Part shown: positions 7,068 through 10,411 of the stretch, piece by piece
Layout: every line of letters starts with the position of its first letter
Numbering within the stretch: the stretch's first letter is position 1
NCBI GenBank assembly: GCA_022711755.1
Contig: JAKLEA010000005.1
Coordinates: 124,001 to 188,000 of the forward strand
Reading direction: 5' to 3'
DNA from: Planctomycetota bacterium
Lineage (GTDB): Bacteria; Planctomycetota; Brocadiia; SM23-32; JAKLEA01
Length of the DNA: 64,000 nt
Program-made: the position numbers and the translations under genes
Notes under the pieces: model-generated
Seen by the model: the letters and a program-made list of their open reading frames with translations, nothing else
Databases searched by the model: none
Told to the model about the DNA's origin: nothing

Positions 7068-7143
7068 GTGCGTTCGAACGAAGTGAGAACGCGCAGGTAG
7101 ATGTAGCGAAACCGAAAGACCGAAGGTCTTAGGTTTTACGCGC
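7068..7143 (+). repeat. 76-bp direct repeat, left copy (palindromic core plus tail)
   Basis: This copy matches 10255-10330 at 72 of 76 positions, in the same orientation. It starts with a palindrome (GTGCGTTC ... GAACGCGC, 7068-7094) and continues with GGTAGATGTAGCGAAACCG and an AAACC ... GGTTT inverted pair. It ends 3 bp beyond the stop codon of the restriction-modification gene. Confidence 0.9.
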
Positions 7144-7146
7144 ACA

Positions 7147-10100
7147 TTATGCGCTCAGTTCAAGGTTCAGGGCGAGCAGGCGCTCCAGAATTTCCTCGTC
7201 GCTCATGCCGACGGGCCAGCCGTAGGCGGCGCAGACGGCCTCGTCAAGCCGGGCGTGGAGGATGTCCAGCCACTGCGGGCGGGCGTTATACAGGTTCGTG
7301 AGGGTGCGTTCGGCAAGCCTCGCCTCGCAATCGGCATCCTTCGGGACAGTGCGCGGATAGCGGACGGTTCCGATGCCGTTTGAGTCGGGATTGACAACGT
7401 ATCGCGCCCAGGGGCCGGAGACCGAACCGGGGAATTCGAGGACCTCTTCGCGGGTCCACTCCGGCGGGTTGAGCCAGCGGTTGCGCTTCGCGTCAAGCTC
7501 CTTCGCTACGACGGCAATAGCCTCCTGTTGTTCGGGCGTCGGCTTCGGAAGGGGGAAGGTCTCGAAACAGGTCGTCGGGGTGTAACGGAAGCCGCTTTCG
7601 CGTTCGCGCAGTTGCGTTCCCTGCGCCCGCGCCCAAACCTCGTGAAGGCGGGAATGCAGAAGGCCGAAGAAATAGTCGTCGGAGCGGGCGACAACAATAA
7701 GTTGATGGTCAGGCGAGACAGGAGCGCTCAGCCAAAGGAACAAGCGATGTTTTGAAACCGTAGGTGTTGCAACAAACCGATCCAAAGGCGCAAGCGCCTT
7801 CCGCATCCCATGTCTCGGCGCATAGAGTTGCCACCATTCCCCCCGGTACCAATCGCGGGGTTTCTTCTCCCGGAACGGCTTTGCGTTATCCTGCGCGTGC
7901 TTGAATGGAAGTTCGTAAAGGCAGGCCTGCGCCTCCGTCATTCCAAAGAAGTCAATGATCCACATATTGCGGGAACGAGATGCGACGTCCTTCGCGTTCA
8001 TCCACGGCGTGAGCACGTCGGAATTCGGCCTGCCGTGGGCATTGGGCGATTCGAGCCATTTCCGCGCCGTCGCGTCTGTTACGTCGAACGGCCCCTGCTT
8101 GGTGGTTCCCATGAAACCGAGCTTTCCGTTCCAGCGGATCCGCTTCGCCGTCCCGACGTCGGTCCCGGATGAAAGATTGGCGTTGATCTGAGCGACAGAG
8201 TTGCCGTCAAGCGTTCTGGACTTCTCGAAACCGCCGTCGAAGGCGATCAGCGACACATGAACGTTCGCGCCGTCAAGAATCCATTCCCTGTCGCTGACGG
8301 CGAGGTATATGTCCCCGTCGCTCTTGATGTTCTCAAGAACCGCCCGGTTGGCCCCGCCGCGAATTCCCTGAGTGGCCAGCAGGCCGACTCGCTTGCAGCG
8401 TCCGGATGCGATGTGGCTTCTGCCCTGCTCGAACCAATAGCAGCAGAGATCAACCTCGCTTGGCAGTTTGTCCGCGTAGAGCGCGTGGAGCTTGTTCACG
8501 TAATCGTCGCCAAGTTCGCGCCGCAGGAACTTCCCGCCCAGGAACGGCGGGTTTCCGATGACGCAATCCACTACGGGCCATTGGGGTTCCTTCGGATTCT
8601 CCGGATCGCTCAGGTCAAGGATGGCATCCATGCAGCGGAAGTTATCCATCTTGCTCAGGACGGGGTTGTCCGGCCAGGCGAAGCCGTTGGCGGCCTGCCA
8701 CTGGAGGTATCCGATCCAGATCGTGACCTGCGATAGCCAGTAGGCGTAAGGGCTTACCTCGATGCCGTAAAGCTGGCGGGGCGTCACCTGCGGCCATAAC
8801 GATCCGTTGAGCGAATTCTTCTCGGCGTATTGGATGATCTCCTTCTCGAAGTCCAGAAGCTTCTGGAGGGCGACGTAGAGGAAGTTGCCGGAGCCGCAGG
8901 CGGGATCGAGAATTTTCATGCCGGCGACGCGGACCATGAAGTCGTGCAGCATCGTCGCGCATTCGCCCTTGGCCTTGGCCAGGGCGCCGGCGGTCATTTT
9001 TTTCGGCTTGCGCGGGGCCTTGCCGGATGTTTCGCCGTCGTCAAGGTGCGTTCTCGCTTCGCTCGGACGCACACTACATTCTTCCCCCGCGATTTCTTCC
9101 TGGTTGAGGTGCGTTCTCGCTTCGCTCGGACGCACCCTACATTCTTCCCCCGCGATTTCTTCCTGGTTGAGGTGCGTTCTCGCTTCGCTCGGACGCACCC
9201 TACATTTTTGGCCGGTGGTCAGAAGGTTGTTCATCACGCCGCGAAGCGCGTCCCATTCGCGTCTGAGGGGCTGCATGACGACGGGTTCAACGAGGGTTTC
9301 GATGTCGGCGCGTCCGGTGAAGTGAGCGCCAAGTTGGGAGCGCTTGGCCGGGTCCATCCCGCGCTCAAACAGCGTCCCGAAAATCGAGGGGTCAATAACG
9401 CTCCAGTCAAGCACGGCGGCCTTATAAATACAGTTCAGCTCGTCAGGCTCAAGGGGGATGACCTCGGCGTCGCTGAACAGGTTCCCGTTGAAATAGCGGA
9501 TTGCGTCAAGTCCGAAATAATCGCCTTGAGCCATGGCTTCAAAGAGGCGGGAAGTTAGCTTCACGAAAATGTCAGGATTCAGTTTGGCCTTGAAGAGCAG
9601 TTCGGTAAAGAGGGCTTCCGGCAGGAGGCCCATGTCCTCGGCGAAGAGGCAGAAGACGACGCGGTCCAGGAAGCGGGCGACCTGGAAGGGGTCCAGCCCG
9701 CGATCGCGCAGGCGGATGGCAAGTTCCGCCACGCGGCGGGCGGCCTCATCCGTGATCTCCGGGATGGTCATGCTGGGCTTGAGCATTTCCGGCTTGGTAA
9801 AGACCCAGCGGAGTATTTCCAGGCTGCGGGGGCGTCCGACGGCGTCCAGCGCGATCTCGTGTTTCTCGGTCGGGGTGTTGGTGAAGTTGGTGCGGATGAC
9901 GATATTGTCAATATCGCATACGATGAGGAGCGGAGGGTTTTCGAGGGATTCGCGGTATTTCAGGAGTTGGCGATAAGCGTGGTCGAGGTTGGCGTGTTTG
10001 CCCTTGTATTCCCAGCCGAAGAATCCCTTTTTCCATACGTCGGCCCAGCCCTGCCCGCCGCCGGACATTTCCGCGCCCTTTTCAAACGTGAAGGTTTCCC

Positions 10101-10230
10101 CCTGCGGGTCGGCTTCGGCGGGGGTTGGGTGTTCGATCAGACGGCAGAGGTCAATGAAATGCTCCTGGGCTGAGGAGCGCTCCTTCAACTCCGAGTCGGA
10201 CCATTTCTGTATGAATTGCCTTGCGTCCAT
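7147..10230 (-). CDS. MmeI-like type IIG/IIL restriction-modification enzyme
   Basis: A single polypeptide of about 1027 residues that should both cut and methylate DNA. The N-terminal nuclease has D64-x9-E74-x-K76 in GWADVWKKGFFGWEYKGKH, the same spacing as the MmeI active site. A helical region follows (FLDRVVFCLFAEDMGLLP). The adenine methyltransferase core has motif I DPACGSGNFLYVAL near 440 and motif IV NPPF near 560. A C-terminal target-recognition and spacer region completes it. I prefer the ATG at 10228-10230 (MDARQFIQKW); an upstream TTG at 10248 is possible, and neither has a strong ribosome site. Residues about 344-406, between nuclease and methylase parts, are three 21-residue tandem repeats (VRPSEARTH ...) encoded by an inserted palindromic element. 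The gene is bracketed by 76-bp direct repeats and has no separate methylase or specificity partner. Confidence 0.88.
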   Translation of the reverse strand: MDARQFIQKWSDSELKERSSAQEHFIDLCRLIEHPTPAEADPQGETFTFEKGAEMSGGGQGWADVWKKGFFGWEYKGKHANLDHAYRQLLKYRESLENPPLLIVCDIDNIVIRTNFTNTPTEKHEIALDAVGRPRSLEILRWVFTKPEMLKPSMTIPEITDEAARRVAELAIRLRDRGLDPFQVARFLDRVVFCLFAEDMGLLPEALFTELLFKAKLNPDIFVKLTSRLFEAMAQGDYFGLDAIRYFNGNLFSDAEVIPLEPDELNCIYKAAVLDWSVIDPSIFGTLFERGMDPAKRSQLGAHFTGRADIETLVEPVVMQPLRREWDALRGVMNNLLTTGQKCRVRPSEARTHLNQEEIAGEECRVRPSEARTHLNQEEIAGEECSVRPSEARTHLDDGETSGKAPRKPKKMTAGALAKAKGECATMLHDFMVRVAGMKILDPACGSGNFLYVALQKLLDFEKEIIQYAEKNSLNGSLWPQVTPRQLYGIEVSPYAYWLSQVTIWIGYLQWQAANGFAWPDNPVLSKMDNFRCMDAILDLSDPENPKEPQWPVVDCVIGNPPFLGGKFLRRELGDDYVNKLHALYADKLPSEVDLCCYWFEQGRSHIASGRCKRVGLLATQGIRGGANRAVLENIKSDGDIYLAVSDREWILDGANVHVSLIAFDGGFEKSRTLDGNSVAQINANLSSGTDVGTAKRIRWNGKLGFMGTTKQGPFDVTDATARKWLESPNAHGRPNSDVLTPWMNAKDVASRSRNMWIIDFFGMTEAQACLYELPFKHAQDNAKPFREKKPRDWYRGEWWQLYAPRHGMRKALAPLDRFVATPTVSKHRLFLWLSAPVSPDHQLIVVARSDDYFFGLLHSRLHEVWARAQGTQLRERESGFRYTPTTCFETFPLPKPTPEQQEAIAVVAKELDAKRNRWLNPPEWTREEVLEFPGSVSGPWARYVVNPDSNGIGTVRYPRTVPKDADCEARLAERTLTNLYNARPQWLDILHARLDEAVCAAYGWPVGMSDEEILERLLALNLELSA
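9044..9206 (-). repeat. Three 63-bp tandem repeats carrying palindromes, in frame inside the RM gene
   Basis: The palindrome with arms GTGCGTTC and GGACGCAC occurs at 9046-9072, 9109-9135 and 9172-9198, exactly 63 bp (21 codons) apart; the last unit is partial. On the coding strand each reads through as VRPSEARTH, followed by LNQEEIAGEEC in the complete units. The reverse complement of the 27-bp core matches the core of the flanking repeats at 7068 and 10255 at 23 of 27 positions, all differences being transitions. Confidence 0.92.
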
Positions 10231-10254
10231 TGTCTCAATGCGCAGCAATGTCGG

Positions 10255-10330
10255 GTGCGTTCGAACGAAGTGAGAACGCGCCGGTAGATGTAGCGAAACC
10301 GAAAGACCGAAGGGCTAAGGTTTTTCGCGC
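10255..10330 (+). repeat. 76-bp direct repeat, right copy
   Basis: Partner of 7068-7143 with four mismatches. It lies 24 bp upstream of the preferred ATG of the RM gene, so any promoter of that gene must overlap or cross it. About 50 bp further right, 10381-10393 holds CCCACCCTACATT. Its reverse complement (TGTAGGGTGGG) resembles the edge of the internal repeats (TGTAGGGTGCG) and a motif at 41957. Confidence 0.9.
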
Positions 10331-10411
10331 GCGGAATCGGGCGAAACCCCATTTCCCGCGTGTGCAAGACATGCGTCCTGCCCACCCTACATTTACATCC
10401 TTGTCAACATC

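What the first reader, a model, noticed from the sequence alone, without database searches (positions are those of the whole stretch)
9044..9206. Palindromic repeat has invaded a restriction-modification gene in frame and been tandemly copied
Three 63-bp units, each with a 27-bp palindrome, lie inside the MmeI-like gene between nuclease and methylase domains. They add 21 residues per unit (VRPSEARTH...) without a stop or frameshift. The reverse complement of the core matches intergenic copies on both sides of the gene (23 of 27, all transitions). This resembles Rickettsia palindromic elements, which insert into open reading frames, and would be a new family in an unrelated bacterium.
Basis: partly seen in the sequence, partly recalled or inferred. 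Interest (0 to 1): 0.72.

Follow-up and report, generated by a model that had tools for sequence, protein, structure and literature searches.

The report
Mobile palindromes nested inside bacterial genes
A short palindrome sits three times in frame inside a bacterial restriction-modification gene, starting at the same nucleotide where different palindromes start in other bacteria's versions of the gene; it was likely put there by a transposase whose relatives are themselves found in frame inside essential genes.

Summary
In detail: 9044-9206 is 2.6 copies of a 63-bp unit (three palindromes) in frame in an MmeI-type restriction-modification gene. It is an insertion: over 120 aligned homologues the stretch has a median of 41 residues, here 101. 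AlphaFold predicts it disordered. The palindrome has a 5' GTAG foot, the mark of REP elements, not the CGTC end of Rickettsia elements. In-frame REPs are already in print (PMC3733652), so the array alone is a known kind.

The setting I did not find in print. A GTRG foot starts at the same nucleotide in four other MmeI genes, three with different palindromes, one with the foot only; a tree needs separate gains or losses. One homologue carries a whole RAYT transposase in that linker. In Verrucomicrobiota 44 of 150 listed RAYT matches lie in frame inside host genes such as LeuRS, ValRS, PriA and MetH, mostly between shared repeats.

Likely mechanism: RAYT-driven insertion at a favoured site, then tandem amplification. 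Against it: few copies here, and no cognate RAYT found.

The parts
7147..10248 (-). MmeI-type (type IIL-like) fused restriction-modification gene, 1033 codons counted from the TTG, uninterrupted
   Evidence: MmeI_N, MmeI_hel, MmeI_Mtase, MmeI_TRD above Pfam cut-offs
9044..9206 (-). in-frame array, 2.6 copies of a 63-bp unit; adds about 60 residues (349-411) to the interdomain linker
9171..9203 (-). REP-like copy 1 (first in gene order), GTAG foot + imperfect palindrome, 33 bp
9108..9140 (-). REP-like copy 2, identical to copy 1
9045..9077 (-). REP-like copy 3, one change just after the foot (GTAGT)
9475..9684 (-). MmeI helicase-spacer domain, upstream of the array in the gene
   Evidence: residues 189-258
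8236..8964 (-). MmeI DNA-methyltransferase domain, downstream of the array in the gene
   Evidence: residues 429-671
7068..7143 (+). intergenic composite: diverged copy of the palindrome (7068-7094) joined to a second palindromic repeat
10255..10330 (+). intergenic composite on the other side of the gene, 95% identical to 7068-7143

Best explanation
Three GTAG-footed, REP-like palindromes lie in frame in the linker between the helicase-spacer and methyltransferase domains of an MmeI-type gene, where they were likely put by a RAYT-type (HUH, single-tyrosine) transposase that joined one element at a favoured site, and were then likely copied as a 63-bp tandem module. Shown: the array, the foot, the open frame, the absence of the peptide from 119 aligned homologues, and other copies in the genome. 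Shown: a GTRG foot starts at the same nucleotide (second base of the codon after TG[K/Q]K) in four other MmeI genes, three of them with a different palindrome. Shown: RAYT transposases, most of them between repeats shared by both flanks, occur in frame inside many host genes in two phyla. Inferred: that a RAYT moved this family; that the site is favoured by sequence and not only by tolerance; that the 33-bp length (3n, open in 5 of 6 frames) and the predicted disordered linker are why the gene survived; that the enzyme still works.
For: Array, frame and insertion. GTAG foot on 3 of 3 in-gene copies and on 4 of 6 copies elsewhere (C79:234668, C46:139009, C79:20923, C79:247345; the two flanking copies have GTCG and CAAG). 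Insert 351-413 has pLDDT under 50, between two helices; the MmeI crystal chain 5HR4 aligns without an extra segment there. Same-nucleotide foot in L191 (pair GTAG...CTAC), L198 (pair GTGG...CCAC), L203 (GTGG hairpin) and L196 (foot only); six labelled tips need 6 changes, at least 5 forced by well-supported branches. P0106: a whole RAYT plus three AGVPPAES repeats in the same linker, seen as protein only. In-frame RAYTs: 44 of 150 listed matches in the phylum of G295, Verrucomicrobiota, and 10 of 100 in the window's phylum. 40 of 44 share an exact repeat of 14 bp or more, inverted or direct, between left and right flank; permuted control 29 of 865.
Against: Only six copies outside the array plus partial ones, few for a REP family. 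None of the 8 Y1_Tnp loci of this genome has this palindrome in the flanks read, and the P0106-type RAYT has no match in G000 at 1e-15. All four other same-nucleotide genes come from one phylum sample. Two of their four palindromes were looked for in 5% and 12% of their genomes and gave one near copy each; footed hairpins of any kind were 39 against 4 in a shuffle in one genome, 18 against 11 in the other. A bases at -3 and -2 before the left foot (17 and 15 of the 22 found) may reflect codon choice in loops; the right side is weaker (12 and 10 of 23), and none of the four footed copies elsewhere in this genome has both A's.
Confidence: 0.7

Rival explanations
1. The shared nucleotide is tolerance only: REPs land anywhere, and this disordered linker tip is one of the few places where the enzyme survives, so surviving insertions pile up there.
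For: The insert is predicted disordered; 20 of 120 homologues have more than 50 residues here, and several of these, judged by eye, hold other repeat-like peptides such as PLPRGEGRGEG or GFQPVIDHGQDGRATDG; PMC6006769 says REP insertions in linkers or loops may be harmless (passage read).
Against: Tolerance alone does not predict the same nucleotide in five genes within a linker of some 20-40 codons, nor A at -3 and -2 in 17 and 15 of 22 in-frame units.
Confidence: 0.4
2. One ancestral insertion in this MmeI lineage, kept and rewritten from local REP families, explains the shared position.
For: Four of the five genes sit in one well-supported part of the tree; the palindromes differ between genomes as local rewriting would predict. 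For the radical-SAM hosts L228, L229, L247 RAYT identity (71-77%) is close to host identity (72-84%), as inheritance would give.
Against: Uninserted genes are interspersed: 6 tips need 6 changes. In other hosts RAYT and host are decoupled: LeuRS L251/L252 hosts 89% identical, RAYTs 51%; PriA L267/L276 hosts 89%, RAYTs 51%.
Confidence: 0.15
3. A coding tandem repeat that grew by slippage from host sequence, palindromic by chance, with no mobile element.
For: A 63-bp unit in frame with 99% matches is typical of tandem duplication; the spacer LNQEEIAGEE may be host linker.
Against: 31 of 33 bases of the footed palindrome recur at C79:234668, far from the gene, and the core again in both flanks; hairpin z -2.6.
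Confidence: 0.07
4. A Rickettsia-type palindromic element family in a new host.
For: In frame, palindromic, 3n length, open in 5 of 6 frames.
Against: GTAG foot instead of the CGTC end reported for R. conorii elements (PMC3733652); copies inside only one gene were found in this genome.
Confidence: 0.03

Closest known systems
Intragenic GTAG REPs (PMC3733652; section 15 and passages read)
   Same: GTAG foot, palindrome, in frame inside genes, dimers and clusters, also in the PVC superphylum; two Xanthomonas recB genes hit at about the same site
   Different: Here a direct tandem of a 63-bp module in an MmeI gene; the same nucleotide is used in genes of different lineages with different palindromes; whole RAYTs in frame inside host genes were not described in the parts read
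REPtrons / RAYT (TnpAREP) units (PMC8266576, PMC2817692; passages read)
   Same: RAYT bounded by footed REPs in opposite orientation, HUH motif kept
   Different: In the related loci the unit lies inside another open frame and is read through; in the passages read the units are separate genes
TnpAREP genes that carry in-frame REPs, subclass 2.4 (PMC6006769; passages read)
   Same: REP in frame, frame kept, placed in a peripheral region
   Different: There the REP is inside the transposase; [quoted passage not shown]
Rickettsia palindromic elements (recalled, and passages of PMC3733652)
   Same: In-frame coding palindromes in unrelated genes
   Different: CGTC end in R. conorii; many genes per genome (recalled)

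Membership tests
GTAG-type REP | GTAG (or GTGG) directly 5' of the hairpin | tested here: met
   3 of 3 in-gene copies, 4 of 6 copies elsewhere
GTAG-type REP | palindrome that folds as a single-strand hairpin | tested here: met
   perfect 7-bp outer stem, imperfect interior; z -2.6
GTAG-type REP | high copy number (usually over 100 per genome; abstract of PMC2817692 as seen) | tested here: not met
   six copies outside the array plus partial ones; so it is called REP-like and not filed as a full REP family
GTAG-type REP | association with a RAYT gene in the same genome | tested here: not met
   8 Y1_Tnp loci, none with this palindrome in the flanks held (about 1.5 kb); the assembly is 94% complete, so one could be missing
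Rickettsia palindromic element | CGTC at one end (R. conorii, PMC3733652) | tested here: not met
   GTAG foot
Rickettsia palindromic element | in-frame copies in many genes of one genome (recalled) | tested here: not met
   interior copies found in one gene
MmeI-type restriction-modification enzyme | MmeI N-terminal, helicase-spacer, methyltransferase and target-recognition domains in one chain | tested here: met
   four domains above Pfam cut-off, C-terminal domain PF20467 not matched; DPACGSG and NPPF present
MmeI-type restriction-modification enzyme | active cutting and methylation | not testable with these tools
   needs an assay
REPtron (for the related in-frame units, not the window) | RAYT with HUH and tyrosine motifs | tested here: met
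   HUH in 42 of 44, tyrosine motif by a crude pattern in 37, both in 35
REPtron (for the related in-frame units, not the window) | bounded on both sides by footed REPs | tested here: inconclusive
   flank repeats shared in 40 of 44, but a GTRG-footed hairpin was found on both sides in only 18 of 44, on at least one side in 27

The most novel reading that the evidence does not exclude
A lineage of RAYT transposons in Planctomycetota and Verrucomicrobiota lives inside coding sequences: stop-less REP-RAYT-REP units enter exposed loops of essential and restriction-modification genes in frame, at preferred sites (AAN before GTRG), are translated through as extra protein domains like unspliced inteins, and leave or scatter short in-frame REPs such as the array in this window.
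Probability: 0.47. Interest if true: 0.86.

Novelty: new variant of a known kind. Interest (0 to 1): 0.68.

Why it matters
REPs are usually described as intergenic. Here the same linker nucleotide in one enzyme family holds different REPs in several lineages, and whole REP transposases sit in frame inside genes such as LeuRS, ValRS and PriA. If the reading is right, coding loops are a habitat for a transposon family, the insertions are a natural record of where proteins tolerate extra sequence, and the question how RAYTs choose their sites becomes testable with defined targets. It also warns annotators: such proteins have been set aside as fusions or errors (PMC6006769).

Tried and rejected
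Rickettsia-type kinship was rejected on the end motif. A chance-palindromic coding repeat was rejected because of copies elsewhere. The cognate RAYT was looked for in the flanks of the 8 Y1_Tnp loci of the genome and not found; other GTAG hairpins occur near three of them (L018, L019, L020). A structure of a ValRS with an embedded RAYT (P0227, alignment A2) gave mean pLDDT 59 and is not used. In a search with a RAYT-bearing ValRS in the window's phylum I saw no match over the RAYT part in the rows listed; two long frames there (G220, 1284 aa; G229, 1476 aa) were not followed up. The scan of named genomes gave 79 loci; the first linker extraction failed for 10 of them. A later profile run used 87 frames and, of the insertions of 18 residues or more that it printed, I judged one by eye a clear GTAG REP, L133, in another linker; its strict pattern occurs twice in its genome. 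The Acidobacteriota search gave 13 loci, of which 6 could not be read by my pattern and none of the other 7 had an expanded linker. One search printed no insertions because its output was cut off; it was repeated. One search stopped with an error and was repeated, in which 2 of 41 planned rows (P0020, P0025) were dropped for lack of an anchor motif; the rows were my choice, not a random sample, and the tree is a quick one (15 of 36 inner branches well supported). The 55 fetched RAYT loci (58 RAYT-bearing frames) are not a random sample either: 17 are the rows that cover the RAYT, 38 were picked because their frame was 590 aa or longer. The fraction 44 of 150 rests on the rows listed, which says that more were not listed; frames of 400-589 aa (6 rows) were not all checked. 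In the window's phylum 14 of 100 rows had frames of 590 aa or more; all 14 were fetched and 10 were nested. Y1_Tnp itself was matched at 1e-5 in 25 of the 34 nested frames scanned; in the other 9 the RAYT is recognised only by similarity to that of P0106.

Full report
What is there. Window 7147-10248 (minus strand) is one open frame of 1033 codons with four MmeI domains above their Pfam cut-offs; the C-terminal MmeI domain was not matched. Inside it, 9044-9206 holds 2.6 copies of a 63-bp unit with 99% matches. On the gene strand each unit reads AATGTAGG-palindrome-spacer; the three 33-bp elements lie at 9171-9203, 9108-9140 and 9045-9077, the third with one change. The 33-bp element is a multiple of three and open in 5 of its 6 reading frames; the sixth meets the TAG of the foot. 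The outer stem GGTGCGT/ACGCACC is perfect, the interior is not; as single-stranded DNA only 3 of 200 shuffles fold at least as well.

It is an insertion. In an alignment of 120 homologues the stretch that corresponds to residues 325-425 has a median of 41 residues and 101 here; none of the other 119 holds the peptide. The solved MmeI structure 5HR4 aligns without an extra segment at this point. In the AlphaFold model residues 351-413 have pLDDT under 50 and sit between two long helices (313-345 and 420-442), so the insert is predicted to hang out as a disordered loop.

It is REP-like, not Rickettsia-like. GTAG precedes the palindrome in 3 of 3 in-gene copies and in 4 of 6 copies elsewhere in the 5.94-Mb assembly. 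The two copies that flank the gene match the core at 23 of 27 bases, all differences transitions, but lack an intact foot and are joined to a second palindromic repeat. One copy (C79:234668) differs at 2 of 33 bases and forms the last residues and stop codon of a 496-codon frame. GTAG is the foot of one large class of REP elements, and R. conorii elements end in CGTC (PMC3733652, passages and section 15 read). The family is small here, and none of the 8 Y1 transposase loci of the genome has a copy in the flanks read, so I call it REP-like and leave the responsible transposase open.

In-frame REPs are known. PMC3733652 reports REPs inside genes of several species, more than half as dimers or groups, with regions of 20 to 30 and up to 43 to 82 residues, and says that different REPs in two Xanthomonas recB genes lie at about the same site. 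Taken alone, this array is a new case of that kind.

The same nucleotide in other lineages. DNA of MmeI genes in genomes of the Verrucomicrobiota (phylum of L094, a Limisphaerales record) shows GTRG feet that start at the second base of the codon after the conserved TG[K/Q]K, exactly as in the window: L191 (GTAG hairpin ... hairpin CTAC), L198 (GTGG hairpin ... hairpin CCAC), L203 (GTGG hairpin) and L196 (foot GTAGGG without a clear hairpin). The palindromes differ from each other and from the window. In the 5% and 12% of two of these genomes that I read, the L191 and L203 palindromes had one near copy each; footed hairpins of any kind were 39 against 4 in a shuffle in the first and 18 against 11 in the second, so high copy number is not shown. 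On a quick tree of 39 MmeI proteins built without the linker, the six labelled tips (these four, the window and P0106) need 6 changes, at least 5 of them forced by well-supported branches; the tree cannot tell gain from loss. P0106, a metagenome protein of 1243 residues, carries a whole RAYT (Y1_Tnp) and three AGVPPAES repeats in the same linker, seen at protein level only.

RAYTs nested in genes. A search with that RAYT among long proteins matched 1064; the 120 listed are P0106 and 119 others, with host domains of ValRS, AlaRS, IspG, MetH, DnaE, isochorismate synthase and several restriction-modification families; eight of the 119 hold two RAYTs. In 387 genomes of the phylum of G295, 111 have a match; of the 150 matches listed 49 lie in open frames of 590 codons or more, and in 44 of these 49 the host continues on both sides (at least 122 residues before, 67 after). 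Pfam on 34 of the 44 found a host domain in 33: LeuRS, ValRS, PriA, MetH, IspG, carbamoyl-phosphate synthase, exonuclease VII, HypF, adenosine deaminase, type I restriction subunits, Eco57I-type methylases, one MmeI and others. In the window's own phylum 10 of 100 listed matches are nested, two of them in genomes of the window's class; Pfam on nine of the ten names AlaRS (three), Eco57I-type or related methylases (four), PurH and a flavin oxidoreductase. That phylum is Planctomycetota by inference: the linker of G266 is identical to that of L082, a named Planctomycetota record.

These units look like REPtrons. Left and right flanks share an exact repeat of 14 bp or more, inverted or direct, in 40 of 44 cases against 29 of 865 permuted pairs. 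A GTRG-footed hairpin was found on both sides in 18 of 44 and on at least one side in 27; clear cases run GTAG-hairpin ... RAYT ... hairpin-CTAC, as in exonuclease VII (L253), PriA (L276, L279, L283) and MetH (L246). The HUH motif is present in 42 of 44, the tyrosine motif by a crude pattern in 37. In some host groups RAYT and host histories are decoupled: two LeuRS hosts are 89% identical with RAYTs 51% identical at the same site, two PriA hosts likewise, while RAYTs in more distant PriA hosts are 70% identical. In the radical-SAM group L228, L229, L247 the two run together (RAYT 71-77%, host 72-84%), as inheritance would give. So repeated insertion at the same places is likely for some hosts and not shown for all. 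Bases -3 and -2 before the left foot are A in 17 and 15 of the 22 cases found, weaker on the right (12 and 10 of 23); the window array has AAAAAT or GAAT before its feet, but none of the four footed copies elsewhere in this genome has both A's. Five Eco57I-type hosts (L226, L231, L272, L274, L345) take the RAYT between the YTPREIV motif and the DPA(C/V)GSG motif or its like, which I take to correspond to the MmeI linker.

How it likely works. A TnpAREP cuts and joins single-stranded REP DNA in vitro (PMC8266576, passages read). One GTAG-footed element was likely joined into the linker of this gene; because it is 33 bp long and free of stops in the frame used, the protein gained a short, predicted disordered loop and the gene stayed whole. 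The REP plus about 30 bp of adjacent sequence was then likely duplicated twice, and not long ago, since the units are nearly identical. Whether the site is chosen by sequence or only tolerated is not settled; the shared nucleotide speaks for choice.

What is new and what is not. In-frame REPs, and in-frame REPs inside TnpAREP itself, are in print. I found no report of whole RAYT units in frame inside host genes in searches of an open-access library, judged from listings and from passages of four papers; one census says it discarded unexpectedly long TnpAY1 proteins as fusions or annotation errors (PMC6006769, passage read). Some public annotations already name such proteins doubly, for instance 'alanyl-tRNA synthetase/REP element-mobilizing transposase RayT'. 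Most subscription papers are not in the library.

Limits. The window comes from an assembly of 121 contigs; a 163-bp repeat array can be miscounted. The function of a decorated enzyme was not tested.

Noticed in passing
window 7085-7143 and 10270-10330; own genome: A second palindromic repeat (about GAAACCGAAAGACCGAAGG[T/G]CTTAGGTTTTTC) flanks the gene on both sides; BLAST with 10240-10405 listed 40 places in the genome, many of them to this part.
   Followed up: partly
G000:C79:20923 and C79:247345 (L010, L012): A longer variant of the palindrome with a further palindromic stretch in its loop.
   Followed up: no
L133, MmeI second linker, residue about 881: A Geobacteraceae MmeI gene holds GTAGGGGCGAATGGTATTCGCCC in frame in a later linker.
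   Followed up: partly
P0121, P0122, P0123, P0124, P0125, P0126, P0127, P0170: Single host proteins (AlaRS, IspG, MetH, DUF1156 and a methylase) that carry two separate RAYT domains in frame.
   Followed up: no
L347, L349, L357: AlaRS genes of three Planctomycetota genomes carry a RAYT at the same place, between VRVL(T/S)MG and ELCGGTHV.
   Followed up: partly
L251, L252, L255, L263: Four LeuRS genes carry a RAYT at the same editing-domain loop although the RAYTs are only 47-58% identical.
   Followed up: partly
L259:4080-8735: An MmeI-type gene with a RAYT inside the methyltransferase part rather than in the linker before it.
   Followed up: no
P0106 towards the C-terminus: Three SPRDAGATTAHE-like repeats in a second linker of the same MmeI protein that holds the RAYT.
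   Followed up: no
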